Of a stretch of DNA of 64,000 nucleotides, positions 3 to 29,642 are shown piece by piece. The notes under the pieces are model-generated. The model was not told the origin of the DNA. It saw only the letters and a list, made by a program, of their open reading frames with translations, and made no database searches. Source of the DNA: a virus. The position numbers were made by a program, and so were the translations under genes. Numbering within the stretch: position 1 is the stretch's first letter; every line of letters begins with the position of its first letter. Where the stretch lies: IMG/VR virus record IMGVR_UViG_3300033145_000767, positions 26,470 to 90,469 of that record. One strand, given 5' to 3'.

Positions 3-245
3 ATAGCAACATACAAAGCAAGTTATGTGCTAGAGCCTAAGAAGTTAAAGAAGATTAAAATGCTTGCTAGTAAGAAGGGCGAGAGCAAGTCAAGGGTTAT
101 ATCTTTCTTCTTTGATAGTGATGAAGATATAGCTTTAGTAAGTAAATACTTTAATGTATCAGTACTAAACAATAGAGAGCCACAAGTAGGGCACTCAGAC
201 CTATTAATAGCTATATTAAAGGAATTAGATAAGTATGGTAAATAA
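3..245 (+). CDS. Hypothetical protein, 5' end outside the window
   Basis: The frame is already open at base 3, so the true start lies to the left. The first possible internal start is a GTG at 27 with no ribosome-binding site in view. The visible part of about 80 residues is lysine-rich at first, then a mixed hydrophobic and acidic stretch. I do not recognise a family. Its last 11 bases overlap the homing endonuclease gene at 235, the same arrangement seen at the other endonuclease genes in this window. Confidence 0.6.
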   Translation: MATYKASYVLEPKKLKKIKMLASKKGESKSRVISFFFDSDEDIALVSKYFNVSVLNNREPQVGHSDLLIAILKELDKYGK

Positions 246-813
246 ACTTTGCACTAAATGTAAATTAACAAAAAAGTTAAATGAATTTCCACCGCATAGA
301 AAATATAAAAGTGGAAGAAATTCTTGGTGTAGAAAATGTAAAAATCAATATATGAGGGCATTTAGAAAAAATTATCCTTGGCTTTGTTCTTATAAATCTG
401 CAAAGAATAGGTGCAATAACAAAAATTGTAATGATTATAAAGATTACGGTGGTAGAGGTATTAGATTTTTATTGACCAAGGAACAGATAAAGAAACTTTG
501 GTATAGAGATAAGGGTTATAAACTAACACAGCATAGTATAGACCGTATAGATAATGATGGAGACTATACATTTAATAATTGTAGGTTTATAGAATTAAGT
601 GAAAATTCAATAAAACAAGAACATAATAAAAAAGAAAAAGAGGTATATCAATACAGTTTGCAAGGAAAATCCCTTAACAAATGGAAGAGTATGTCAGAAA
701 TCTCTAATAAATTAAATTACGATATTAGTGGTATATCTAAGGCTTGTTCAGGAAAACAAAAAACATCTTATGGGTTTATATGGAAACTTAAAGAAATGGA
801 GAAATTAAAATGA
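235..813 (+). CDS. Free-standing HNH-like homing endonuclease with NUMOD1 domain
   Basis: This is a mobile DNA endonuclease gene, 192 residues. A small zinc-ribbon-like N-terminus has C6/C9 and C32/C35. The core holds the DRIDNDG-type catalytic block (D103 to Y111) followed by NNCRFIE. A C-terminal NUMOD1-type DNA-binding module (about 138-187) ends in GFIWKL. Four relatives with the same core occur at 12747, 14085, 19370 and 29199. It overlaps the upstream gene by 11 bases and the next gene by ATGA, so it is seamlessly embedded in the operon. Homing activity is inferred from the family; the recognition site is unknown. Confidence 0.85.
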   Translation: MVNKLCTKCKLTKKLNEFPPHRKYKSGRNSWCRKCKNQYMRAFRKNYPWLCSYKSAKNRCNNKNCNDYKDYGGRGIRFLLTKEQIKKLWYRDKGYKLTQHSIDRIDNDGDYTFNNCRFIELSENSIKQEHNKKEKEVYQYSLQGKSLNKWKSMSEISNKLNYDISGISKACSGKQKTSYGFIWKLKEMEKLK

Positions 814-1680: not shown

Positions 1681-3022
1681 TAAAGGATATACTTCCCCAA
1701 GAATTTCATCGGAGTATAAGGATTGCGGACTTATTTTGACTTTTGACCAATACAATATATGTGGTTTTGGTTTTGGGAAACAATGTGCAGGATGTTTGTA
1801 TTGTTTTAGTAATTCCCAGAAAATAAACCACCCAATGTACCAAGAAAAAGCATTTCAAGTAAGGTCAGTAAACCCTGATAAAGTAGTTGACATGCTTACA
1901 GGAAAAAGTAAGTCTAAATATTATGATAATTTCTTTAAATATAGATTCCCCTTTCATTGGGGGGGTTTAGCAGACCCATTCTGTTACATGGAGGAGAAAG
2001 AAAGAGTTGGTTTAAAAATATTACAAGGTGCAAGTAAAGTACAGTATCCTATAATATTCTCTACAAAAGGCACTTTTATGTGCTATGATAAAGAGTATCT
2101 TAAAGTATTTGAAAGTTATAAGAAAAGTAAAAACTTAGGGTTTAGCTTTAGTATAATTACTAATGAAGAAAGTCTTGCAAGTAAAATAGAAAAAGAAGTG
2201 CCAACTGTAGAAGAAAGACTTAAAGCAATGAAAATTCTTTCTGACATGGGCTTTTGGACAGTTCTTAGGCTAAGACCCTTTATGATTGGTATAACAGATA
2301 TTAACTTAGAAACCCTCTTAGAAAGGGCTAAAAAGGCCGGTGCAAGGGCAGTATCAACAGAGTTTTATTGCCTAGACCTTAGAAGTTTAAGCACCTTAAA
2401 TGAAAGACTTAAAGAAATGAATAAAATAACAGGTCTTGACTATAGAAAATATTATAAAGCTTTATCCCCAAGTAGCAGAGGAACTTACTTGAGATTGAAT
2501 AGGCTGGCAAAAGAGCCCTATATGAAAAGGTTACTAAAGAAATGTAAGGAACTAGATTTAAAGGTTTCTATATCAGACCCAGACTTTAAAGAGTTTAATT
2601 TTTCTGGGTGTTGCTGTGGCTACCCTGAAACTAAAGAAGAATATAATAGTGAAATTTGTAATTGGTCTAAAGGTCAATTAACATATCATTTAACAGAATT
2701 AAGAAAAAAGTATTGGTCTGGTTATAGACCTGCATTATTAACTTGGGACGAGGTTAAAGATACTATAGCTAATGATTGGGCAAGTGATGGGAGATACTTT
2801 AAAGATAGTATAAAATATTGGTCAACAGATTTTAGAAAGAAACAGCAATCACACATAGATGAATTTCTACAGTCATGGAATAGTACTAAGTCAAGTGATA
2901 GCCCATACAGTTATTTTGATGGGTTATTAGTCCCATATAAATTAGACGACAATGGTAATATAGTTTATAAATATGAACCTTCTGATTCTGAGCTTAGATT
3001 GCGTAAGGACGGAATTGTATGA
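1670..3022 (+). CDS. Radical SAM protein related to spore photoproduct lyase / photolyase-like group
   Basis: This is a 450-residue protein with an AGGAG site six bases before ATG 1670. A cysteine cluster C39-x2-C42-x2-C45 followed by F occupies the place of the radical SAM [4Fe-4S] motif, which is normally Cx3Cx2C, so the spacing is one residue short. GGLADPF (about 98-104) followed by E and a helix matches the conserved block after the first strand pair in SPL/photolyase-like radical SAM proteins. A second cysteine group, CCC near 313-315 plus C330, could hold an auxiliary cluster. The reaction is unknown. Neighbours include a DUF2284-like protein and a glycosyltransferase, so DNA repair, cofactor or base-modification chemistry are all possible. 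Confidence 0.75.
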   Translation: MACSKGYTSPRISSEYKDCGLILTFDQYNICGFGFGKQCAGCLYCFSNSQKINHPMYQEKAFQVRSVNPDKVVDMLTGKSKSKYYDNFFKYRFPFHWGGLADPFCYMEEKERVGLKILQGASKVQYPIIFSTKGTFMCYDKEYLKVFESYKKSKNLGFSFSIITNEESLASKIEKEVPTVEERLKAMKILSDMGFWTVLRLRPFMIGITDINLETLLERAKKAGARAVSTEFYCLDLRSLSTLNERLKEMNKITGLDYRKYYKALSPSSRGTYLRLNRLAKEPYMKRLLKKCKELDLKVSISDPDFKEFNFSGCCCGYPETKEEYNSEICNWSKGQLTYHLTELRKKYWSGYRPALLTWDEVKDTIANDWASDGRYFKDSIKYWSTDFRKKQQSHIDEFLQSWNSTKSSDSPYSYFDGLLVPYKLDDNGNIVYKYEPSDSELRLRKDGIV

Positions 3023-3087
3023 ATAAAAAAGAATATATGAAAGAATATAGATTAAATAACATTTATATGTTATACTTGTTTGCATAG
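3019..3087 (+). pseudogene. 22-codon stub resembling the start of an HNH endonuclease
   Basis: The frame begins in ATGA overlap with the radical SAM gene. It reads MNKKEYMKEYRLNN, which resembles the KEYMKEYR-type N-terminus common in phage HNH proteins, then runs into unrelated sequence and a stop. It may be what is left of a deleted homing endonuclease, or a chance reading frame. The evidence is only the short motif and the overlap. Confidence 0.25.
3048..3076 (+). promoter_or_regulatory. Candidate extended -10 promoter
   Basis: TGTTATACT (3068-3076) is an extended -10 element (TGn plus TATACT) in one of the few non-coding gaps on this arm. It resembles the promoters before 6791, 10268, 22126 and 34810. 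The -35 region is poor (TAGATT around 3049). It would drive the genes from 3106 onwards. Confidence 0.35.
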
Positions 3088-3105
3088 GAGGAAAGAGGAG
3101 ATAAT

Positions 3106-3348
3106 ATGAAAAAGTTTATTACCATGTTACTAATGATACTAATGGTTTGGGTAGTTGTTGATAAACAATGCACACATAGCAGAAATTATTTTGTGTTAGA
3201 AAATAAAATAGGGGTTAGAAAAGTTTTCCATAGCCATGCCTCTAAGGATAATGAGGTTATTATTGGGGATAGAGTAAAAATTAAAATACCCACAAAAAGA
3301 TTAAAATGGTATGAAGATTCATATAAGTACTTAGAGGGGGTAATATGA
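3106..3348 (+). CDS. Small exported or membrane-anchored protein, 80 aa
   Basis: The product has a hydrophobic N-terminal segment (about 4-18) that could be a signal peptide or anchor, then a basic soluble tail with a GDRVKIKIP stretch. GGAGGAAAGAGGAG lies upstream of ATG 3106. Its stop overlaps the start of the next gene. No family recognised. Confidence 0.6.
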   Translation: MKKFITMLLMILMVWVVVDKQCTHSRNYFVLENKIGVRKVFHSHASKDNEVIIGDRVKIKIPTKRLKWYEDSYKYLEGVI

Positions 3349-3899
3349 TAAACGAAAAAGAAGTTAGTAACTTATTACTAGAAAAAGTTGGTACTCATAG
3401 TAGTATCTTTATGTTCAAAGCAAAAGTTATATTCGATAAGAAAATAAAAACTTACTGTTGCTTAGAGTATAATGGGAAAAAAGGGTGTCCTAACTATGGT
3501 AAAAAGAAAGGGTGTCCACCAAACAATAGAGATATAGATGAAGTGCTAGATGTAACAGAAGACATTTATGTATTTGGTATGTCTTTTAACTTAAAGATAC
3601 ACGCAGATGAAATGAAAAAGAAACACCCTAAGTGGACACAAAGGCAATGCTATAATGTAATATATTGGCAACCAAAGCAGAGAAAGAAATTTAAGATGTT
3701 TATAGATAACTTTAAAAAGAAGTACCCTGAATTAAGGGTAGACACCTTGCCAGAGGGGCATGGGGTTGATGTAACTAAAATGTTAAAAGATGCAGGTGTA
3801 GGTATATCCTGGGACTACCCTTTGGACACAGTTTGGACAGTTGCAATAGCAGGTAAGAAGGCTAAATATAAAAGAAAAAAGAGGGTTAAAAATGTATAA
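3345..3899 (+). CDS. DUF2284-like cysteine-rich protein
   Basis: This 184-residue protein contains CPNYGKKKGCPPNN (about 48-61), preceded by a C-C pair (YCC near 37-39). That pattern, cysteines followed by the CPP signature, is the hallmark of DUF2284, a family described as predicted metal-binding. A second DUF2284-type gene occurs at 31445. It overlaps the gene on either side. Being next to a radical SAM protein, it could take part in Fe-S or metal delivery, but that is inference. Confidence 0.6.
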   Translation: MINEKEVSNLLLEKVGTHSSIFMFKAKVIFDKKIKTYCCLEYNGKKGCPNYGKKKGCPPNNRDIDEVLDVTEDIYVFGMSFNLKIHADEMKKKHPKWTQRQCYNVIYWQPKQRKKFKMFIDNFKKKYPELRVDTLPEGHGVDVTKMLKDAGVGISWDYPLDTVWTVAIAGKKAKYKRKKRVKNV

Positions 3900-12407: not shown

Positions 12408-12750
12408 AGAAGTACTAAGTATGAAAGAAGTTTTACAGAAACTAATAGGTCAAGATTTAGATACAGTAGTAAGTTATGATGTAGAGGAAATAGTTTCAAG
12501 TATTAATGAAGAATTAGCTACTTATAATAAAACTAAAACTAAACTTATAAAGAAACTAGGTAAAGAAGATAAAGATAAAAAGACTATTGTAGTTGAAAAA
12601 GAAAACATAGAAAAATATAATAAAGAGTTAGTTAAAATATTAGAAAAAGAAGTAGAAATAAAAGGTAACAAAATTAAAGTTTCAAGACTAGAGGGAAGTA
12701 AATTAAATGTTATAGAAGTTGCTAGAATTAAACCTATACTAGAAAGATGA
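12391..12750 (+). CDS. Helical hypothetical protein, 119 aa
   Basis: Preceded by AAAGGAGG, the protein has a long charged helical body (about 10-90) rich in Lys, Glu and Val. The layout resembles small phage proteins of the DUF1617 kind, but I cannot confirm it. It overlaps the endonuclease gene at 12747 by ATGA, so it is the 3'-end partner of that mobile gene. Confidence 0.55.
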   Translation: MKLKVKEVLSMKEVLQKLIGQDLDTVVSYDVEEIVSSINEELATYNKTKTKLIKKLGKEDKDKKTIVVEKENIEKYNKELVKILEKEVEIKGNKIKVSRLEGSKLNVIEVARIKPILER

Positions 12751-13202
12751 AAATGAGCATTAAAAATGAGTACTACAAAAAGTATCCTTGGCTACACTCT
12801 TTAATGTTAGCTAAACAAAGGTGTAACAATAAAAAAAATAATAGGTATAAAACCTATGGTGGTAGGGGTATAAAACTATTTTTAACCAAGGAAGCCATAA
12901 AGAAACTTTGGTTTAGAGATAAAGCATTTAATATGATTAAGCCCTCTATAGACCGTATTAATAATGATGGGAATTATGGGTTTAGTAATTGTAGGTTTAT
13001 TGAAACATCCGATAATGTAATTAAATCTAAAGAAAAAATTATTAATCAATATGATTTACAAGGTAAATTTATTAAATCTTGGAAAAGCCAAATTGAAATA
13101 CAAAATACTTTAGGTTTTTTACAATGCTGTATTTCAGATGTTTGTAGAAAGAAACAAAAAACTGCTTATAGTTTTATTTGGAAGTTTAAAAAAGAGAGGT
13201 AG
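12747..13202 (+). CDS. Free-standing HNH-like homing endonuclease with NUMOD1 domain
   Basis: A 151-residue member of the DRIDNDG-type family: RCNNKKNNRYKTYGGRG, then SIDRINNDGNY and SNCRFIE, then a NUMOD1-type C-terminus with ISDVCRKKQKTAYSFIWKF. It lacks the N-terminal zinc ribbon of the copy at 235. The central 123 bases are about 92 percent identical to the copy at 19370, which suggests recent movement within this lineage. The gene begins in ATGA overlap with the upstream gene. Confidence 0.85.
   Translation: MKMSIKNEYYKKYPWLHSLMLAKQRCNNKKNNRYKTYGGRGIKLFLTKEAIKKLWFRDKAFNMIKPSIDRINNDGNYGFSNCRFIETSDNVIKSKEKIINQYDLQGKFIKSWKSQIEIQNTLGFLQCCISDVCRKKQKTAYSFIWKFKKER
12882..13004 (+). repeat. Endonuclease-core DNA repeat, copy 1
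   Basis: This 123-base stretch aligns without gaps to 19604-19726, with about ten mismatches. It encodes the stretch from LTKE to CRFIE in two homing endonuclease genes. The closeness at DNA level, including silent positions, indicates recent common origin. Confidence 0.8.
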
Positions 13203-13768: not shown

Positions 13769-14085
13769 GTAACACTAAGAGAGGTAAATCAACAGATAAG
13801 TATAAAAAATATAATCATCACCATGAAATACTAAATGAACATAAAATAGTGGATTTTAATAATGGTAAATTTGTAGCTAATATTGAAGCTATACCTTTAT
13901 TAAAAGCACTTAATGAAATAGGTTTAAGAACAAGAACACATCACATTGGAAAAGAAAAAGAGGCTTTTATAAGTATTTTATTAGATAAAGATGTAAGTAT
14001 AGAAATAAAAACTGTATTTGAAAGAGATGCAGATAGAACTAAATACACTGGTAAAAAAGAATTATTAATTTCTTGGAGAAAATAA
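13765..14085 (+). CDS. Hypothetical protein, 106 aa
   Basis: GGAGG lies just upstream of ATG 13765. The product has a basic, His-rich N-terminal part (HHHEILNEHK near 18-27) and a strand-helix-strand body (IEAIPLLKALNEIGLRTRTHHIG). I cannot assign a family. Its stop overlaps the ATG of the endonuclease at 14085. Confidence 0.55.
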   Translation: MSNTKRGKSTDKYKKYNHHHEILNEHKIVDFNNGKFVANIEAIPLLKALNEIGLRTRTHHIGKEKEAFISILLDKDVSIEIKTVFERDADRTKYTGKKELLISWRK

Positions 14086-14687
14086 TGAGTAAAATAATAT
14101 TAGGGTATATAGCAGAAGAAGGTGATGCAAAACGAATGGAAGAATTTCAAATATCGCCTGAAACTAATGAATGTCTAAAACCTATTTATAAGAAAAATAA
14201 AATAATAGTAATAGATAAAATAAAAAAACAATTTCTAAAGAAGTATTTTCTTAAATACCCTTGGATGAAGCATTATTTCAATGCTAGAAGAAGGTGCAAA
14301 GATAAAAAGTTCTATAGCTATAAATATTACGGTAAACTTGGCATTAAATGTCTAATTAATAGGGTTGAAATTGAGGAAAGATGGTATAAAGATAAAGCAT
14401 ATAAAATGAAGAAACCGACTTTAAGTCGTAGTAGCCATGATAAAGATTACACTTTTAAAAATGCTAGGTTTATAGAGAATTCTAATAATATAGCGGAAAG
14501 AAATAAAAGAGTATGCTCAAAAAAAATAGAACAATATGACTTAGAAGGTAATTTTATTAAAGAATGGGAAAGCCAATCTCAAATAGAAAGGTGGTTAGGT
14601 TACGACCAAGGTAATATATCAAATGTATGTAGGGGCAAGTATAAACAGTCATATGGTTTTGTTTGGAGGTTTAAAGATGCCAAATAA
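14085..14687 (+). CDS. Divergent HNH-like homing endonuclease, catalytic block altered
   Basis: The 200-residue protein aligns over its full length with the copies at 235, 12747 and 29199 and keeps the NUMOD1 C-terminus. In the catalytic block, however, SIDRIxNDGNY has become TLSRSSHDKDY and NCRFI has become NARFI, so the conserved first Asp and the Cys are lost. It is probably inactive or altered in metal binding. It carries an extra N-terminal segment of about 45 residues. The start is ATG 14085 at the upstream stop; the longer TTG start is unlikely. Confidence 0.75.
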   Translation: MSKIILGYIAEEGDAKRMEEFQISPETNECLKPIYKKNKIIVIDKIKKQFLKKYFLKYPWMKHYFNARRRCKDKKFYSYKYYGKLGIKCLINRVEIEERWYKDKAYKMKKPTLSRSSHDKDYTFKNARFIENSNNIAERNKRVCSKKIEQYDLEGNFIKEWESQSQIERWLGYDQGNISNVCRGKYKQSYGFVWRFKDAK

Positions 14688-16034: not shown

Positions 16035-17906
16035 ATGGATATAGGTAAAAAGCTATTTGAGTATTTAGAGCTTAAATTGCCTGACTTCAATCAGACCAGA
16101 AATAAAAAGGGTAAGATACTATTTACTTGCCCTAATTATTATGGTCATAAGTTTAAAAAAGGTTCTCCTACCGCTATGTTTACTATGGGCGATAGCAAGA
16201 AAATATGTTGTCTCCAATGTGGCTGGAAGGGGGATGCTTATGATGCTGTTAGAACAGTTGAGGCTGATAAGAAAAATTCTGATAATGCAGGCATACTAAA
16301 GCATCTTATGGATATATTGGATTTAGATGTGTTCTCTGAACTTAATGATTATAAAAAACTTGGATTTTCAATACTACCTGTAGCTAGAAATGGTAAAGAG
16401 GCTATTGAACCTAAGTGGCAACAGATAACCCATTATGAAAAAGTAGATTGGATTAAATGGTTAAACAATGGTTTAAATATAGGTCTTAGGACAGGGGAAG
16501 TATCTGGTGTTACTGTAGTTGATTATGATATAAAAGGGGAAGAGACAGAAGAGCAAAAAGCAATTCTTAAGTCTTTACGGGATTCTGATACGCTTGTACA
16601 GAAAACACCAAGTGGGGGTAAACACTTTATTTTTAAGTTTGATGAAGAAGTACCTCAACAAGTAAACTTAGGTGGGATACACATAGATACAAGAAACACA
16701 AATGGTTATGTATTAGTTGCACCTTCTAAAAGAACAGAAGGGGATTATGCTATTGAAGACTTTGGTAAAGAGATTAAAGACATACCAAAGGAAATTAGAG
16801 AATTTATATTAGCTAATGCTAACAAGTCTAAAAAAGAGAAAGATGTTAAAATAATACTAAAAGATGGGGTAGATTTAGGTATAGACTTAACAGCAATAAA
16901 CCAAGTAAAAGAAGGGGACGGTAGAAATACTATAATCACATCTTTAGGGGGTTTATTAATAAAGAAATTTAATATACAACAGACTGCTGACATTGTAAGT
17001 ATAATCAATCATAATTTTTTTACACCCCCTCTATCTAAAAAAGAGATACTAAATACTTTACATAGTTTGGCTAAGTATCAAGATAGTGATGATTTAACGC
17101 ATGAGCAGACTGTATATGATTATTGTAAAGAAATGCAGAGTGATATTACTGCTAGAGATATGATGGATAGTTTACAGTTGCCAAGAGCAACAGTAGATAA
17201 GTATTTATCTAAGTTTAAGAAAGAACATATATTAATTAGGTGTGGCAGGGGGAGATACAAATTTAGAGAGGTAATAGAATGGTCTAAAGAATCTCCTAAG
17301 ACACTTGAAGAATACCCATATGAAATTAAATATTTTAGTGAATGTAACCATTTTCAAACAGGGGATATTCTACTACTTGGGGGTCAAACAAATATAGGTA
17401 AAACAACAATAGCTTTAAATATGTTAAAACATATGATTGCTCAGAATGTTACACCTTACTATATTTATTTAGAATCTGGTAGTAGGTTTCAAAAGACAAG
17501 CAAGATACTAGATATTTCACACAAGTACTTTCATGCCTATCATGCAGACCCAATGAGTATAGATATTATACCTGATAGCTTTACAATAATAGATTGGTTG
17601 CATATTAGTATGAAGGAATATACTGATACAGTATTTAAACATCTTAGTGATGAAATACAAAGAAAAGGTGGCATACTTGTAGTATTTACTCAGTTAAAAG
17701 AAACTAATGATTGGTTTGCCCCTAATTTAATTAAATCTTTTCCTACCTTTGCTTCTAGGTATTTTCAAGATAAAGATAATAAATCAGGGGGCTACTGGAA
17801 AATAGATAAATTAAAAGAACCTAAAGGTAATTATACAAGTTATGAGATACCTTGTCAATATAACTTTGAAACAAGAGAACTAAATAGGAAGGATTTACTT
17901 TACTAA
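16035..17906 (+). CDS. Primase-polymerase / DnaB-type helicase fusion
   Basis: A 623-residue replication protein. An N-terminal zinc module (FTCPNYYGHKF... CCLQCGW, about 29-65) comes first. A bifunctional prim-pol domain (about 104-260) has VVDYDIK as the metal-binding DxD and TPSGGKHFIFKF as the family histidine motif. A winged-helix-like linker lies around 350-415. A RecA/DnaB-type ATPase follows, with Walker A GGQTNIGKTT (about 448-457), Walker B FTIIDWLH and a VVFTQLK sensor. It should both prime and unwind the fork. Confidence 0.85.
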   Translation: MDIGKKLFEYLELKLPDFNQTRNKKGKILFTCPNYYGHKFKKGSPTAMFTMGDSKKICCLQCGWKGDAYDAVRTVEADKKNSDNAGILKHLMDILDLDVFSELNDYKKLGFSILPVARNGKEAIEPKWQQITHYEKVDWIKWLNNGLNIGLRTGEVSGVTVVDYDIKGEETEEQKAILKSLRDSDTLVQKTPSGGKHFIFKFDEEVPQQVNLGGIHIDTRNTNGYVLVAPSKRTEGDYAIEDFGKEIKDIPKEIREFILANANKSKKEKDVKIILKDGVDLGIDLTAINQVKEGDGRNTIITSLGGLLIKKFNIQQTADIVSIINHNFFTPPLSKKEILNTLHSLAKYQDSDDLTHEQTVYDYCKEMQSDITARDMMDSLQLPRATVDKYLSKFKKEHILIRCGRGRYKFREVIEWSKESPKTLEEYPYEIKYFSECNHFQTGDILLLGGQTNIGKTTIALNMLKHMIAQNVTPYYIYLESGSRFQKTSKILDISHKYFHAYHADPMSIDIIPDSFTIIDWLHISMKEYTDTVFKHLSDEIQRKGGILVVFTQLKETNDWFAPNLIKSFPTFASRYFQDKDNKSGGYWKIDKLKEPKGNYTSYEIPCQYNFETRELNRKDLLY

Positions 17907-18157
17907 TGAATGCTTTTTATAACTTTTGGATAAATCAACTAGGGTATTTGAACATTACTATATTATTAATAGCTGGGTTGATGATAGTTAGTACTAAAAG
18001 AAAAGTTAAGCTTATTGCTTGTTGGTTGTATATACTAAGTAATATTATTATCTTTTTAAGGGGTTATATGACCAATGTAGATTCTTTTATAAGTGCAAGT
18101 CTTATATTTGGTGCATTAACTGTGATAAATATGGTTAGAATATATAAACAAAAGTAG
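17906..18157 (+). CDS. Small membrane protein, three helices
   Basis: The 83-residue protein has hydrophobic segments at about 14-30, 36-52 and 59-77 with basic loops. It shares one base with the helicase stop. No family recognised; the position gives no functional clue. Confidence 0.55.
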   Translation: MNAFYNFWINQLGYLNITILLIAGLMIVSTKRKVKLIACWLYILSNIIIFLRGYMTNVDSFISASLIFGALTVINMVRIYKQK

Positions 18158-18170
18158 AGGGGGTTTACTA

Positions 18171-18359
18171 ATGGATATTAAAAAAGGTTTAAAAGTTTAC
18201 ACAGATGATTTTTGGTATGATTTAGCCCATGGAGGGTATATACACCCTACAAGTATATGTGTAAAAGAAAGTGATGCTATGAAGGTATTAAACGCTTTAG
18301 CTATAATACAAGATTTTGAAGATTCTTGTGAAGAACAAATAGGGGGGTTTATTCAATGA
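18171..18359 (+). CDS. Hypothetical protein, 62 aa
   Basis: A small acidic soluble protein containing GGYIHPTSICVKESDAMKVL and a helix ending in acidic residues. It looks like the many short phage proteins with a GGYI/V-P motif, but I know no function. It overlaps the NUMOD3 endonuclease gene by ATGA. Confidence 0.55.
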   Translation: MDIKKGLKVYTDDFWYDLAHGGYIHPTSICVKESDAMKVLNALAIIQDFEDSCEEQIGGFIQ

Positions 18360-19066
18360 GTCAAAAGAAACACTATAATATAGGTAGAAAAAACCCAAAT
18401 TGGGGAAGTAAAAGTTTTACCCCAAGTACTATACAAAAATTTAAGAAGTTAAGTTGTAAAGAAAATCATTCACGATGGAAAAAAATACCTAAAAAAATAA
18501 TAGAAGGTTTATATTTAAACCAAAAGCGGTCTATTGCAGAGATAGCTAAAATTCTTAAGTGTAGTACAACTGCTATTTACAATAAGTTACTCTATTATAA
18601 AATTAAGAGAAGAACACAATCAGAGGCTATGAAAGAAAAATTCTTGGGTAGAAAACTATCAAAAGAACATAAAGAAAAAATTAGTAAAAGTAGAATTAAG
18701 AAGAAATCAGCAAGAGGTAAGCATAACCCAATGTTTGGTAAAAAGCATAGCACAAAAACTAGAAGTAAAATGAGTATAATAGCAGGCGGCTCTGGCATAC
18801 CTTATGAAGATAAACAGTATACTTACTATTTTTATAGTATTCGTGATAAAATAAGAAAAGGGGATAAAAATATTTGTCAGTTATGTAAAAAAATTAAACT
18901 AAAGAATGGGAATAATTTAGATGTTCACCATATTGACTACAATAAGAATAATAATAAATTTATTAACTTAATTAGTTTATGTAAAAAGTGCCATCTTAAA
19001 ACAAATAGAAATAGAGAACTTTGGAAGGAAGTGTTTTTACCATGTCGCAACACAATAATTCTTTAG
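18356..19066 (+). CDS. NUMOD3/HNH homing endonuclease with helix-turn-helix
   Basis: This 236-residue endonuclease has a helix-turn-helix at about 58-82 (SIAEIAKILKCSTTAIYNK). NUMOD3-type segments FLGRKLSKEHKEKISKS and NPMFGKKHSTKTRSKMS follow at about 95-142. A canonical HNH zinc domain comes next: CQLC (about 179-182), VHHIDYNKNNN, and CKKCH (about 215-219). All catalytic residues appear present. It begins in ATGA overlap with the upstream gene and its end overlaps the nuclease at 19042. Confidence 0.85.
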   Translation: MSQKKHYNIGRKNPNWGSKSFTPSTIQKFKKLSCKENHSRWKKIPKKIIEGLYLNQKRSIAEIAKILKCSTTAIYNKLLYYKIKRRTQSEAMKEKFLGRKLSKEHKEKISKSRIKKKSARGKHNPMFGKKHSTKTRSKMSIIAGGSGIPYEDKQYTYYFYSIRDKIRKGDKNICQLCKKIKLKNGNNLDVHHIDYNKNNNKFINLISLCKKCHLKTNRNRELWKEVFLPCRNTIIL

Positions 19067-19377
19067 AGTTGGCTATAGCAGAAGAACTTAAGTCTAGGGG
19101 TTTAGACATATATGCAAGACCTACAAAGGCTAGTGGGGCTAGTACAGAGTTGGGGGATGTAGAGAATAAATTGCTCATGGTTGAAGCAAAGCAACAGCTT
19201 ACAAAGAAACACCTTACTATAAACAGTAATGTATTCCTAGAAAATGAAGCTTTGTTGCCATACAATTCCAAGAAAATAGCAATTATGGCTTTAGAGAATA
19301 AAACCCTAGGAAAGTTAATTGCCTTACGCATGAATGACTTTTTTGACCTTTTAGAAAGAGCAGAAAAAAATGATTAG
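19042..19377 (+). CDS. PD-(D/E)XK nuclease, VRR-NUC / resolvase-like
   Basis: The 111-residue protein has E12-xx-helix, then ARPTKASGASTELGD39V, and VE48AK50, the D...ExK catalytic core of small PD-(D/E)XK nucleases such as VRR-NUC and archaeal-type Holliday resolvases. It probably processes recombination intermediates. ATG 19042 is chosen over 19021. Its last eight bases overlap the homing endonuclease at 19370. A diverged second copy of its own 3' end lies beyond that endonuclease (19769-19892). Confidence 0.75.
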   Translation: MSQHNNSLELAIAEELKSRGLDIYARPTKASGASTELGDVENKLLMVEAKQQLTKKHLTINSNVFLENEALLPYNSKKIAIMALENKTLGKLIALRMNDFFDLLERAEKND

Positions 19378-19765
19378 CGAGAAGACAAAATACAACAAGC
19401 TATATTATAAGAAAAATAAAGCTAGAGAATTAGAGCGGGCTAAAAAATGGGCAGTAGATAATAGAGATAAAAGAAGAGCAAGCCTTAAAAAATACTATAG
19501 GGAGAACCCATGGATGAATGCTTATAGAGGAGCAAAGGCTAGGTGCAATAACCAAAATAACAATAGATATAACTCTTATGGTAAGAGGGGTATAAAGTTT
19601 TTATTAACCAAGGAAGAACTAAAGAAGTTATGGTTTAGAGATAAAGCATTTAATATGATTAAGCCTTCTATAGACCGTATTAATAATGATGGGAATTATG
19701 AGTTTAATAATTGTAGATTTATTGAATTAAAGGCTAATTTATTAAAAAGGCATAGTAAGATATAG
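19370..19765 (+). CDS. Free-standing HNH-like homing endonuclease, no NUMOD1
   Basis: A 131-residue member of the DRIDNDG-type family with a basic N-terminal helical part (about 1-40), RCNNQNNNRYNSYGKRG, SIDRINNDGNY and NNCRFIE. It stops shortly after the core and has no NUMOD1 module. Its core DNA is about 92 percent identical to that of 12747. It separates the PD-(D/E)XK nuclease gene from a relic of that gene's 3' end. Confidence 0.85.
   Translation: MISEKTKYNKLYYKKNKARELERAKKWAVDNRDKRRASLKKYYRENPWMNAYRGAKARCNNQNNNRYNSYGKRGIKFLLTKEELKKLWFRDKAFNMIKPSIDRINNDGNYEFNNCRFIELKANLLKRHSKI
19604..19726 (+). repeat. Endonuclease-core DNA repeat, copy 2
   Basis: Partner of 12882-13004. The alignment has no gaps and about ten substitutions over 123 bases, several of them silent. 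Confidence 0.8.
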
Positions 19766-19768
19766 GTT

Positions 19769-19892
19769 ATGTATAAAATAGCCTTAAAAGTGCTTTGAGA
19801 ACAAGATTTTAGGTAAACTAATAGTACTTAGATTAGGCGATTTCTTCGATATACTAGAAAAAGCTATAAAAGGTGGTAATAATGATAGGTAA
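19769..19892 (+). pseudogene. Displaced 3' end of the PD-(D/E)XK nuclease gene
   Basis: In one frame 19769-19795 reads MYKIALKVL. After a one-base shift, 19797-19889 reads ENKILGKLIVLRLGDFFDIL then EKAIKGGNNDR. The intact nuclease ends KKIAIMALENK, TLGKLIALRMNDFFDLLERA, EKND. Order, spacing and most residues agree, so this is a second, frameshifted and diverged copy of the same C-terminal coding segment (functional counterpart 19271-19377). It explains the otherwise unusual gap between 19765 and 19882. Confidence 0.8.
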
Positions 19893-20319
19893 AATAGTAT
19901 TTTTATTTGTATTAGCTTATCTTCATGCCTTATGGGAAACAGAGATTGAAGGCAAAGATGGTTGGGCTAAGAATCTTCCTACATGGCGTATATCAAATCC
20001 CTATAAGAAAACATTTAATGGTAAAGATATAACAGGTTATCATACATTTATGGTATTAATATTTACTTTATTCTTCCATAGCTACTTTCTTTATAACTCT
20101 TGGAGCTTTGGTAGAGAATTAATATGCATAGGTACAATGTTAATCTATCTCATAGTAGAAGATTTTTTATGGTTTATTGTAAACCCATACTATGAAACAA
20201 AGAAATTCTTTGAAAAAAAAGTTAGATGGCATAAGAAATGGTTTTTATACTTACCTATAGATTATTGGGCAATGATAATTATTGGTTCATATTTAATTTT
20301 AATAGGGAGTAAAATATGA
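19882..20319 (+). CDS. Four-helix integral membrane protein
   Basis: ATG 19882 follows AAAAGGTGGT. The product of 145 residues has an N-terminal hydrophobic helix, a polar loop with WAKNLPTWRISNPYKK, helices at about 55-72 and 80-102, and a last one at about 122-142. Conserved-looking W, H and E residues (HALWETE, VEDFLWF) might line a site. Similar membrane proteins of unknown function exist in prokaryotes. No function is claimed. Confidence 0.55.
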   Translation: MIGKIVFLFVLAYLHALWETEIEGKDGWAKNLPTWRISNPYKKTFNGKDITGYHTFMVLIFTLFFHSYFLYNSWSFGRELICIGTMLIYLIVEDFLWFIVNPYYETKKFFEKKVRWHKKWFLYLPIDYWAMIIIGSYLILIGSKI

Positions 20320-20561
20320 TAAGAGGCTTTATATTAACAGGGCATCCCTGCCAATACAAATATTATATTAAACTTCAGAAACTTAAGAGTAAAGAGTTTC
20401 CTGAACTGAAAAGTATTAAACAACTTAGGGATAACCCTCAAGCAATATTAATAGAAGTAGGTACTTATTGGTTACACCCCATATATGAAAGGGTACAGAC
20501 ATGGCAAAGAAAAGAAAATCTAAAGAACCAGAAGTGGTTGAACAGGGTAAAGAGAAACTAG
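20316..20561 (+). CDS. Hypothetical protein, 81 aa
   Basis: A basic soluble protein, coupled to the upstream gene by ATGA overlap and overlapping the recombinase gene by 61 bases. It contains several aromatic residues and a Trp/Lys/Asn-rich end that may be translated only because of the overlap. No family recognised. Confidence 0.5.
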   Translation: MIRGFILTGHPCQYKYYIKLQKLKSKEFPELKSIKQLRDNPQAILIEVGTYWLHPIYERVQTWQRKENLKNQKWLNRVKRN

Positions 20562-21481
20562 CTAAGTTAGCAATTAGGGGACTAAATAAAAAATTTGGTT
20601 ATGAAGCTTTAAAACCTGCCTCAGAAGAAAAAGAAAGAGAAAGAATACCTTTTGATTTAGATATTCTAAATGAATTGACAGGTGGGGGTATACCCCTTGG
20701 TATGTTTAGTATTTTATGGGGGAATAAGTCCTGTGGTAAAACTACTCATACTTATGGGCTAATAGCAAGGGCACAGAAAATGGGTAAGTTGTGTGCTTTT
20801 TTTGACTTAGAACATTCTTTTGATACACATTGGGCTAAGAAATTTGGTGTGGATATAGATAAATTATTGATAGGGCATTTTGATACTGCTGAACAAGCTA
20901 TGGATACATTTATAGAATTAGCAGATAAGAAAGCTATAGACTTTGTAGTACTTGATAGTGTTCAATCTTTAAGCCCTGAGGGGGAACAACATAAAAAGAA
21001 GAGTGAAAAGATTAAATCTACAAGTGATGATACAATGGCTCTATTAGCTAGAAAGCTATCACAGTTCTTTAGAATGAGTGGTAATAGGGCATATAAGGCT
21101 AATGTAGGTTTACTTCTTATAGGTCAAGCTAGAGTAGACCTAAGTGGTTTTATACCAATGCAGAAAATAAGTGGTGGTAATGCTTTAGAACATTGGTCTT
21201 CTTTAATTTTACATATAAGAAGGGGTACTAAAGCTAATGCCCCTAGATATAAATTTAATAATGAAGAAGGTAAAAAAAGAGAAATAATTATAGGGTTTGA
21301 TACATGTGTTGTTTTAGATAAAAAGAAACTACCTTTTTGTGCCCCTGAAAAAACAGAAGTTCACTTCCCATTCTTTGAGTCAGCTGGCTGGAATGAACCA
21401 ACAAGGGAACAGATAGAGGAATGCTACGGAGATTGGATAGAATTTGAAAAGGAGGCTGAATCTGATGAAGATAGCGATTAA
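20501..21481 (+). CDS. RecA/UvsX-type recombinase
   Basis: A 326-residue strand-exchange ATPase. Walker A is GNKSCGKTT (about 74-82), followed by an FFDLEHSFD block with the catalytic Glu, Walker B VVLDSVQSL (about 148-156), and a GQARVDLSGF loop. Last comes an acidic tail (EKEAESDEDSD) resembling RecA C-termini. It should coat ssDNA for recombination-dependent replication and repair. The RuvC-like resolvase follows directly. Confidence 0.85.
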   Translation: MAKKRKSKEPEVVEQGKEKLAKLAIRGLNKKFGYEALKPASEEKERERIPFDLDILNELTGGGIPLGMFSILWGNKSCGKTTHTYGLIARAQKMGKLCAFFDLEHSFDTHWAKKFGVDIDKLLIGHFDTAEQAMDTFIELADKKAIDFVVLDSVQSLSPEGEQHKKKSEKIKSTSDDTMALLARKLSQFFRMSGNRAYKANVGLLLIGQARVDLSGFIPMQKISGGNALEHWSSLILHIRRGTKANAPRYKFNNEEGKKREIIIGFDTCVVLDKKKLPFCAPEKTEVHFPFFESAGWNEPTREQIEECYGDWIEFEKEAESDEDSD

Positions 21482-22125: not shown

Positions 22126-23085
22126 ATGAAAGATTTACGAAGGTATATTGCTGTAGTTTTGTTACTAACTGTTGTGGGGCTAAACTCTTATGGTATAAAC
22201 AAAAATACTGCACATGCTAATTCAAATGCAAGAGCTACAATTTCATTATCTGGGGGTGTTATTATATTAGCCGATTCTTTTTCTTATTTTATAAAAAATT
22301 ATATTAAAACTAGAGATTCATCTAATAGTGGGATGAAAGAACTAGCCCATAGAGAGCTTGAAAATCATGTAAATATCGCTAGAAATAAAGGAAGTATAAA
22401 AAGCAATAAAATAACAGCCATGATTAATAAAGCTTTTATAATACACAATGAGATTGAAATAGAAAATATAAACAAAAAACCTTCATACAAGTATCTTAAA
22501 TCAGTAACAGTATTTGTAGAGGGGTTACAGCTAGTTTTTAAAACAGAAGACACACCATTTGATGTAAAAAGATGGTCGGGAACAGGTGTAGTAGTTAAGA
22601 TAGATAATAAAAACACCTATATATTAACTAATAAGCATGTAGCTGGTGGTTATAGAGATGGGCATAAAGAAATCTATATTGCAACTGCAAATAGAAAGTA
22701 TACATGTGAAATAGTAAAATTACATAAATCACAGGATTTAGCGTTATTAAAAATAAACGCTGTTTTAAAAGGCAAAGAGGTTGTTAAGGGTTATAATACA
22801 CCTGCTATTACTGAACAGGTATTTACAGTAGGTCATTCTTTAGCCAGACCTTTCATGTATGGTGAAGGTATATTTGCAGGAACAACAATAGAGCATGATG
22901 TTTACCAGTTGCCTACAATCGGAGGTCAATCTGGGAGTGGGGTGTTCAATAAAAATGGTGAATTACTTGGGTTACTATATAGTATATCTGGTACACGAAA
23001 TGGCTTTGGTGTACAATGGGATTTTACTAGGGGTAATGTAGTTAAAAGCGTATATGTTAGAGAATTTTTAGAGGAGAATCTATAA
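22126..23085 (+). CDS. Exported trypsin-like serine protease
   Basis: The 319-residue protein starts with a classic signal peptide: a basic n-region, the hydrophobic core IAVVLLLTVVGL, and a likely cut after AHA near 31. A helical region (about 40-130) precedes a chymotrypsin-fold domain with the triad H171 (LTNKHVAGG), D204 (SQDLALLKI) and S269 (GGQSGSGVFN). The acid and serine context matches Deg/HtrA-like and S1 proteases; no PDZ domain follows. Its own promoter lies upstream. It would act outside the cytoplasm, perhaps on envelope or competing-phage factors; the target is unknown. Confidence 0.8.
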   Translation: MKDLRRYIAVVLLLTVVGLNSYGINKNTAHANSNARATISLSGGVIILADSFSYFIKNYIKTRDSSNSGMKELAHRELENHVNIARNKGSIKSNKITAMINKAFIIHNEIEIENINKKPSYKYLKSVTVFVEGLQLVFKTEDTPFDVKRWSGTGVVVKIDNKNTYILTNKHVAGGYRDGHKEIYIATANRKYTCEIVKLHKSQDLALLKINAVLKGKEVVKGYNTPAITEQVFTVGHSLARPFMYGEGIFAGTTIEHDVYQLPTIGGQSGSGVFNKNGELLGLLYSISGTRNGFGVQWDFTRGNVVKSVYVREFLEENL

Positions 23086-27763: not shown

Positions 27764-29202
27764 GAGTAAAAAGATTATACCTTAATAATTTTAAACTATT
27801 TATAGAAGAAAATATAGAGCCTAAAGGTCTTAATATTTTTATAGGGGATAATAGGGATAATGAAAGTTCTAACGCTTCTGGTAAGTCTACACTAGCTTTA
27901 GAGGCTTTAATGTTCGTATTATATGGGTATACTACTGCTAAATTAGCAGATACTATTTCTAAAGGTAAAAATATGGCATCTGTAGAAGTTTTACTAGAGT
28001 TAAAAGGTATTGAGTATAAGATTAGTAGAGAAATACCAAGTAAGCTCTATATGGAAGTTAATGGCGAGGAAAAGCAATTTGCTACAGCTACTATAGCCCA
28101 AAAATATATTAACGCCATCTTTGGGGATGTTGACTTCTTTAAAAAGTTTAGAACTCTTGATATGCAAAGCGGTATAAACCTATTAGACTTAGGTAATACT
28201 TCTTTAAAGAATTTACTTATGCAATTTATACAAGATTACTTTACCAAGATAAGAAAATCTTTACAAGAGAAGAAACAAAACATGGCTAGATTTCACATCA
28301 AGCATAGAATATTCACACATTTTTATTCTGAGAAAAGAATAGCAGTACTTGACAAACAAATTACTAGGCTTAAGGGTGAATTTGGTTCTACTAAGGGAGA
28401 CCCTAATACACAAGCTAGAGAGATATATAGTGAGTTATGTGGAAGTAATACTGCAATTATTAATATAGCACAACATCTTGAAGAGATTAGTAGAAATAAC
28501 TGCCCTACATGCAATAGGAAACTTCCTAAAGAGATAAATAAGAAACTAGTAGATGAACTTAATGAAGAGTTAGATATAGCTACAGATAGGAGCCAAGAAC
28601 TTACAGAACAGTTAGGTAAAACTAATAAAGATATAGGAAATTATAACAAAAGGTTAGAAGAAGTACATAATGATTTAAACCATGTTCGTGAGTTAAAGCA
28701 AAAAATAGAGCATATGAAAATATTAAAAGACTATAAATATACTGATAGGGATGTATCAATCTATACTAGTTCCCTGAGGGTACTTGATAATTTCTCTGCT
28801 CTTTATATAGAAAATTGGTTAGCAAGTTTGAGTGTTATAATCAACGCATTGTTAAAAGAAATAAATATAAGTATCAAATTTGATGCTACCAAAGAATTTA
28901 TGACAATACAAGATGGTACAGAAACAATGAAGTATGACCAGCTTAGCACAGGTCAAAAAAGATTTCTTAACATAATATTTAAGTTATCAATATTAATGCA
29001 TAAAAATTTAGAAGGTATTATAGTAATAGATGAGGGAATAGATGCCTTAGATATTACTAATCTTAAAAGATTAATTAGAGTATTTGAATCTTTACCTTTT
29101 CAAGTATTTTTAATATCTCAACACTCTGACATAAAGAGTTTGAAAGATGTTAAATGTTTTAATATACTTAGGCAAAACAACAAGGCTAAGGTGGTTGCAT
29201 GA
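27760..29202 (+). CDS. SbcC/Rad50-like ATPase
   Basis: The 480-residue SMC-type ATPase has an N-terminal P-loop (FIGDN...SNASGKST, about 27-45) and short coiled coils. A zinc hook CPTC (C248, C251) follows. The ABC signature LSTGQKR (about 395-401) and Walker B GIIVIDEGIDALD (about 421-433) complete it. It is the gp46-type partner of the SbcD-like nuclease. The coiled coils are much shorter than in bacterial SbcC, as usual in phages. Confidence 0.85.
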   Translation: MRVKRLYLNNFKLFIEENIEPKGLNIFIGDNRDNESSNASGKSTLALEALMFVLYGYTTAKLADTISKGKNMASVEVLLELKGIEYKISREIPSKLYMEVNGEEKQFATATIAQKYINAIFGDVDFFKKFRTLDMQSGINLLDLGNTSLKNLLMQFIQDYFTKIRKSLQEKKQNMARFHIKHRIFTHFYSEKRIAVLDKQITRLKGEFGSTKGDPNTQAREIYSELCGSNTAIINIAQHLEEISRNNCPTCNRKLPKEINKKLVDELNEELDIATDRSQELTEQLGKTNKDIGNYNKRLEEVHNDLNHVRELKQKIEHMKILKDYKYTDRDVSIYTSSLRVLDNFSALYIENWLASLSVIINALLKEINISIKFDATKEFMTIQDGTETMKYDQLSTGQKRFLNIIFKLSILMHKNLEGIIVIDEGIDALDITNLKRLIRVFESLPFQVFLISQHSDIKSLKDVKCFNILRQNNKAKVVA

Positions 29203-29642
29203 GTGCGAAAGGTATAAGATTCTATAAAAGAAACCCTTGGTTAAGGCACTATTATAATGCTAAAACTAGATGCGAAAATATTAAATATAAAAATTATAAA
29301 AACTATGGAGGTAGAGGAATAAAGTTTTTATTAACCAAAGAAGAAATAAAGACTATATGGTTTAGGGATAAAGCATGGTTATTAAATAAACCAAGTATAG
29401 ATAGGGTAAACAATGATGAAGATTATACTTATGGTAATTGTAGGTTTATAGAGATAGAAGAAAACAGAATTAAAGATAGTATAAAGGGTGTAAATCAATA
29501 TAATTTAGAGGGTGTTTTTATCTGTAATTGGAAAAGTGCCAGACAGATAGAAAGAATATTAGGTATACCTAATAGTAATATTTCTAGTGTATGTAAGGGA
29601 AAAAGAATATCAGCACATGGGTATACTTGGAGGTTTATATAA
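29199..29642 (+). CDS. Free-standing HNH-like homing endonuclease with NUMOD1 domain
   Basis: A 147-residue member of the DRIDNDG-type family: RCENIKYKNYKNYGGRG, SIDRVNNDEDY (Gly of DG replaced by Glu), GNCRFIE, and a NUMOD1 end with ISSVCKGKRISAHGYTWRF. It begins in ATGA overlap with the SbcC-like gene and its last base is the first of the next gene. Sequence is more diverged than between 12747 and 19370. Confidence 0.8.
   Translation: MSAKGIRFYKRNPWLRHYYNAKTRCENIKYKNYKNYGGRGIKFLLTKEEIKTIWFRDKAWLLNKPSIDRVNNDEDYTYGNCRFIEIEENRIKDSIKGVNQYNLEGVFICNWKSARQIERILGIPNSNISSVCKGKRISAHGYTWRFI

What the first reader, a model, noticed from the sequence alone, without database searches (positions are those of the whole stretch)
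19042..19892. Homing endonuclease separates a nuclease gene from a second copy of its own 3' end
The PD-(D/E)XK nuclease (19042-19377) ends KIAIMALENK, TLGKLIALRMNDFFDLLERA, EKND. Beyond the HNH gene (19370-19765), bases 19769-19892 encode KIALKVL, then after a one-base shift ENKILGKLIVLRLGDFFDIL, EKAIKGG. The most direct explanation is that the endonuclease arrived with a complete replacement 3' end for its target gene and left the recipient's old 3' end behind to decay. This would be a 3'-end-replacing mode of gene invasion that does not harm the host gene. That it is one event of homing, not tandem duplication, is inference.
Basis: partly seen in the sequence, partly recalled or inferred. 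Interest (0 to 1): 0.82.

Follow-up and report, generated by a model that had tools for sequence, protein, structure and literature searches.

The report
Invading nuclease brings replacement gene end
In this bacterial virus a selfish DNA-cutting gene appears to have inserted into another gene while supplying a new ending for it, leaving the old ending behind as a fossil; a second, independent virus pair found here shows the same arrangement directly, and it matters because it lets a selfish gene land inside a useful gene without breaking it.

Summary
Bases 19775-19892 are a displaced second copy of the nuclease gene's 3' end (28 residues, 64% identity, E about 1e-7), with one frameshift and no 5' part. 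It starts 9 nt after the HNH stop codon.

The two 3' ends differ mostly at synonymous sites (17 synonymous and 10 non-synonymous codon changes, 5 identical, over 32 codons). They therefore diverged as working genes, not as a copy that decayed in place. The relic's stop overlaps the next gene's start, as expected of the native end. Six relatives carry one uninterrupted nuclease gene, but at 50% identity or less they cannot say which end is native here.

A survey of about 100 HNH loci gave one independent second case, L042 (tail-terminator gene / HNH / relic). It has a close relative, L125, lacking the HNH. L125's 3' end matches the relic (125/150) and not L042's in-frame end (94/150); informative sites 41 to 10, P=1.5e-5.

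The same architecture is known in fungal mitochondria; I found no phage report in the papers searched. Verdict: new variant of a known kind. Homing itself is inferred, not tested.

The parts
19042..19272 (+). Native 5' body of the PD-(D/E)XK (Holliday-junction-resolvase-like) nuclease gene, codons 1-77
   Evidence: PHROG 2002 E=1e-7; PDDEXK_15 in 5 of 7 family members; homologous single gene upstream of RecA in six relatives. That this part is native rather than foreign is inferred.
19273..19377 (+). In-frame 3' end of the nuclease gene, inferred to be the foreign replacement end that came with the HNH gene
   Evidence: Stop overlaps the HNH start by 8 nt; diverged from the relic mainly at synonymous sites; direction of replacement by analogy with L042/L125
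19370..19765 (+). Free-standing HNH endonuclease gene, 131 aa
   Evidence: PHROG 3377 HNH endonuclease E=4.3e-15; four paralogues in the same phage; homologues of the same short length in L022, L030, L038
19775..19892 (+). Relic: displaced copy of the nuclease 3' end, frameshifted by one extra base near 19796, no start region
   Evidence: E=4.4e-7 in the whole record; E=6e-8 to 9e-8; stop overlaps next gene start at 19882 by 11 nt
19882..20319 (+). Next gene (membrane-protein-like), whose start codon overlaps the relic's stop: the native junction
   Evidence: Sequence and ORF list
18356..19066 (+). Second, unrelated HNH gene (NUMOD3-HNH) that overlaps the 5' end of the nuclease gene by 25 nt; context, not needed for the 3' event
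   Evidence: PF07460 NUMOD3 E=2.1e-8 and PHROG 8446 E=4e-17

Best explanation
A free-standing HNH homing endonuclease invaded the nuclease gene of an ancestor of this phage at about codon 78 (near 19272). The incoming segment (about 19273-19774) held a complete, diverged 3' end for the gene plus the HNH gene, so the host gene was re-closed in frame at once and the resident 3' end was pushed downstream, where it is decaying. Shown here: the anatomy, the homology, the synonymous-biased divergence, and the same anatomy with a matching uninvaded relative in L042/L125. Inferred: that a double-strand break by the HNH enzyme near the junction started the event, that the donor was a related phage with the HNH gene behind its own copy of the gene, and how the two ends of the break were repaired.
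For: Relic is homologous and unique. 5 identical, 17 synonymous and 10 non-synonymous codons of 32, position differences 11/7/22 (third-position excess P=0.004): the ends diverged as coding genes. Relic keeps the overlap with the next gene while the in-frame end overlaps the HNH start. Six relatives have a single uninterrupted gene with no HNH behind it. Independent case L042: gene / HNH / relic, and HNH-less relative L125 whose 3' end matches the relic 125/150 versus 94/150 for the in-frame end, informative sites 41:10, P=1.5e-5.
Against: No close uninvaded relative of this phage was found, and the distant relatives match the two ends about equally, so the direction of replacement at this locus rests on the gene overlaps and on the sister case. 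Cleavage was not tested. Only two cases were found among about 100 HNH loci, and none in the T4 and ICP1 stretches read.
Confidence: 0.78

Rival explanations
1. Tandem duplication of the gene or its 3' end inside this phage lineage, with later insertion of the HNH gene between the copies and decay of the second copy.
For: Gives two copies of the 3' end flanking the HNH gene without any foreign donor.
Against: Divergence is concentrated at synonymous sites, which a non-coding fragment would not show unless both copies stayed functional for long; no 5' part of a second copy remains; in L042 the in-frame end, not the relic, is the odd one against the relative.
Confidence: 0.08
2. Reverse direction: the in-frame end is native and the HNH gene brought a foreign gene-end fragment on its far side.
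For: Distant relatives do not discriminate between the two ends.
Against: The relic overlaps the next gene and the in-frame end overlaps the HNH gene; L042/L125 shows the opposite direction.
Confidence: 0.1
3. The downstream piece is a functional exon, reached by splicing, translational bypass or frameshifting.
For: Its reading frame after the frameshift is open to a normal stop.
Against: No Rfam intron match; the upstream gene is already complete; the relic has a stop and an extra base at its start.
Confidence: 0.03
4. Chance similarity or assembly artefact.
For: The DNA-level alignment alone is weak, and the record comes from a metagenome.
Against: Protein-level E about 1e-7 and a unique hit in 90.5 kb; the same anatomy occurs in an unrelated metagenome.
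Confidence: 0.01

Closest known systems
Fungal mitochondrial mobile ORFs that replace the C-terminus of atp6, atp9, cox2 and nad3 (Allomyces macrogynus; Glomus sp.; PMC3630166)
   Same: In-frame foreign 3' end, endonuclease gene, displaced native 3' end, in that order; the two ends strongly diverged at DNA level (64-81% identity in Glomus); displaced end matches the uninvaded relative
   Different: Phage, not mitochondrion; HNH endonuclease rather than LAGLIDADG or GIY-YIG; much shorter replaced segment (about 35 and 50 codons)
Free-standing homing endonucleases of T4-like phages (Seg and Mob; review PMC2988022)
   Same: Free-standing endonuclease gene next to a conserved phage gene, expected spread by break repair with co-conversion of flanks
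   Different: In the passages read, cleavage and insertion sites lie in or next to neighbouring genes and the flanks are converted without a leftover duplicate gene end; here the insertion lies inside a gene and leaves a relic
HEG-islands (PMC10448857)
   Same: A conserved gene bracketed on both sides by homing endonuclease genes
   Different: No leftover partial copy of the bracketed gene was described in the passages read; here the breakpoint lies inside the gene and is recorded by the relic
Group I intron-encoded homing endonucleases
   Same: Insertion inside a coding gene without loss of the gene product
   Different: No intron found; the gene is rescued by a spare 3' end instead of splicing

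Membership tests
C-terminus-replacing mobile ORF (fungal mitochondrial type) | Gene 3' end present twice, on both sides of an endonuclease gene | tested here: met
C-terminus-replacing mobile ORF (fungal mitochondrial type) | Displaced end, not the in-frame end, matches an uninvaded close relative | tested here: inconclusive
   No close relative of the window phage; met in the sister case L042/L125
C-terminus-replacing mobile ORF (fungal mitochondrial type) | Endonuclease shown to cut the uninvaded allele | not testable with these tools
   Needs a cleavage assay
Free-standing phage HNH homing endonuclease | HNH family profile match in a free-standing ORF | tested here: met
   PHROG 3377 E=4.3e-15; no Pfam HNH match up to E=0.1
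Free-standing phage HNH homing endonuclease | Presence/absence polymorphism at the same site among relatives | tested here: met
   Absent behind the nuclease gene in L003 and L005-L009; relatives are distant
Group I intron homing endonuclease | Group I intron around the endonuclease gene | tested here: not met
   No Rfam intron match at E up to 1 in 17500-20600
HEG-island | Conserved gene flanked on both sides by endonuclease genes | tested here: met
   HNH genes 18356-19066 and 19370-19765 flank the nuclease
PD-(D/E)XK Holliday junction resolvase | Family profile match with the nuclease core | tested here: met
   PHROG 2002 E=1e-7; PDDEXK_15 in 5 of 7 relatives; PDB match to 1ob8 only E=0.068; resolvase activity untested

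The most novel reading that the evidence does not exclude
Phages hold a recurrent class of homing endonuclease cassettes that travel with a synonymously diverged replacement 3' end of their target gene. The cassette can then land inside a coding gene without an intron or intein, the divergence between the two ends hinders recombination that would remove the cassette, and each event makes a chimaeric host gene.
Probability: 0.5. Interest if true: 0.75.

Novelty: new variant of a known kind. Interest (0 to 1): 0.63.

Why it matters
Homing endonucleases usually avoid harming a host gene by sitting in introns, inteins or between genes. Carrying a spare gene end is a further way, known from a few fungal mitochondrial genes. 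Showing it in phages, with an uninvaded relative in one case, makes the mechanism accessible to fast genetics. It also offers an explanation for some chimaeric phage genes and for orphan gene-end fragments next to endonuclease genes.

Tried and rejected
Intron: no Rfam match. Close relatives by nucleotide, and the nuclease or HNH protein in annotated phages or plasmids: none. Nuclease in GTDB genomes: none. Helicase as bait: none. Deciding native versus foreign end from the distant relatives: not possible. Other duplicated gene ends beside the other HNH genes of this phage: none.

Candidate repeats in the surveys that proved ordinary: L073, two full-length paralogues flanking an antisense HNH; L076, tandem HNH paralogues; L118, apparent paralogues; L052, repeated segments not next to the HNH; L069, low-complexity matches (all).

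I first suspected that the window HNH was truncated, since its paralogues carry a C-terminal module; homologues of the same length (L022, L030, L038) indicate a short class.

Full report
Observation. The window lies in a 90,469-base virus record (G000). The nuclease ORF 19042-19377 is followed, with an 8-nt overlap, by an HNH ORF 19370-19765. Nine bases after the HNH stop, at 19775, begins a second copy of the nuclease's 3' end. A search of the whole record with the nuclease finds itself and this fragment only (E=4.4e-7); self-comparisons give E=6e-8 to 9e-8 and 64% over 28 residues. The fragment has one extra base after KIALKVL, so it is not a working reading frame. At DNA level the copies share only 56 of 96 positions, little better than shuffled DNA. 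This is informative rather than a weakness: the shared signal is in the protein.

What the genes are. The nuclease belongs to a phage PD-(D/E)XK family (PDDEXK_15 in 5 of 7 members; PHROG 2002 Holliday junction resolvase E=1e-7). The HNH protein is PHROG 3377 (E=4.3e-15) and has four paralogues in the same phage. The nuclease is also abutted on its 5' side by a different, NUMOD3-bearing HNH gene (18356-19066). No intron was found.

Relatives. No close relative turned up in the collections that could be searched. A RecA search and then profile searches gave six phages (L003, L005-L009) in which the same nuclease gene sits upstream of a RecA gene, single and uninterrupted, with no endonuclease gene directly behind it. 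The gene is therefore an ordinary resident of this position, and the endonuclease is the newcomer. These relatives are only 37-50% identical and match the window's two 3' ends about equally, so they cannot say which end is native.

Local evidence on the event. Three facts favour a foreign end that came with the endonuclease. First, with the extra base set aside, 32 codons show 5 identical, 17 synonymously changed and 10 non-synonymously changed; differences by codon position are 11/7/22 (third-position excess P=0.004). A fragment decaying in place would not prefer synonymous changes, so the two ends diverged while both were coding. Second, the relic's stop (19890-19892) overlaps the next gene's start (19882) by 11 nt, the tight junction usual in this genome, whereas the in-frame end's stop overlaps the HNH start: the relic is in the native place and the in-frame end is tied to the HNH gene. 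Third, there is no room for a 5' part of a second gene copy.

An independent case with the decisive comparison. A profile of the HNH family gave 22 loci, and a common phage HNH region gave 80 more. Nearly all were tested for protein-level copies of upstream genes downstream of the HNH; two had too little flank. One clear further case appeared: L042. Its tail-terminator-like gene (1878-2318; relatives annotated as tail terminator) is followed by a small reverse-strand ORF, an HNH gene of another subfamily (2599-3378) and, immediately after, a copy of the tail gene's last 50 codons (from about 3386), open in frame. A close relative from the same metagenome, L125, has the tail gene and no endonuclease gene in the stretch read. 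Over the last 150 bases L125 matches the relic at 125 positions and L042's in-frame end at only 94; the 5' body matches at 230 of 291. Of informative sites, 41 side with the relic and 10 with the in-frame end (P=1.5e-5). The alternative that L125 once had the insert and lost it by recombination between the ends cannot be formally excluded, but it would have to restore the native end almost to its first base. No similar relic was found in the T4 stretches around its homing endonuclease genes or in 100 kb of ICP1. Apparent cases in L073 and L076 are ordinary paralogues.

Mechanism. Most likely the HNH enzyme cut a resident allele near codon 78. Repair from a donor allele that carried the enzyme gene behind its own gene's 3' end copied donor end plus enzyme gene into the break, and the resident end was left on the far side. 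The gene is closed in frame at once, and the cut site is split. The synonymous divergence of the donor end should also hinder excision by recombination. Cleavage, the donor and the exact repair path are inference.

Relation to what is known. The same architecture, with the same pattern of evidence, is described for fungal mitochondrial mobile ORFs: foreign C-terminus in frame, endonuclease, displaced native C-terminus that matches the uninvaded relative (Allomyces macrogynus atp6; Glomus sp. atp6, atp9, cox2, nad3; PMC3630166). Passages of the T4 mobile-DNA review (PMC2988022), of a Skunavirus HNH survey (PMC12724721) and of the HEG-island paper (PMC10448857), found by term search, do not describe it, and literature searches found no phage report. 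That library lacks most subscription journals, so absence there is weak evidence of novelty. I therefore file it as a phage variant of a known kind. The two HNH genes around the nuclease also fit the HEG-island pattern.

Confidence. Observation: settled. Replacement-end event at this locus: 0.78, limited by the lack of a close uninvaded relative. Replacement-end event in L042: higher, because the comparison was made. Homing activity: untested.

Correction to my notebook: entry 3 gives the next gene's start as 19891; the ATG is at 19882.

Noticed in passing
L042 1878-3532 and L125 843-1283: Independent second case of gene / HNH / displaced native gene end, with an HNH-less relative from the same metagenome. 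Here a small reverse-strand ORF (2315-2497, helix-turn-helix-like by eye) lies inside the inserted segment too.
   Followed up: yes
window 18356-19066: A second, different HNH gene (NUMOD3 type) overlaps the 5' end of the same nuclease gene, so the nuclease is bracketed by endonuclease genes; no relic of a nuclease 5' end was seen upstream.
   Followed up: partly
window 235-813, 12747-13202, 14073-14687, 29190-29639: Four paralogues of the 19370 HNH gene; 12747-13202 shares a long, nearly identical DNA core with it, suggesting recent duplication or conversion within the phage.
   Followed up: partly
G000 1-113 and 90357-90469: The two ends of the record overlap (identical over at least about 110 bases at protein level), so the 90.4-kb genome is probably complete and circular in assembly.
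   Followed up: no
L008 1759-1959 and 1959-2561: Around the same nuclease locus L008 carries an HNH fragment and an HNH-like gene behind the helicase gene that its close relative L009 lacks: endonuclease gene turnover in this neighbourhood.
   Followed up: no
window 22126-23085: ORF that reads like a trypsin-type serine protease with a signal-peptide-like start, between the RecA and DNA polymerase genes; unusual for a phage (impression from the sequence, not tested).
   Followed up: no
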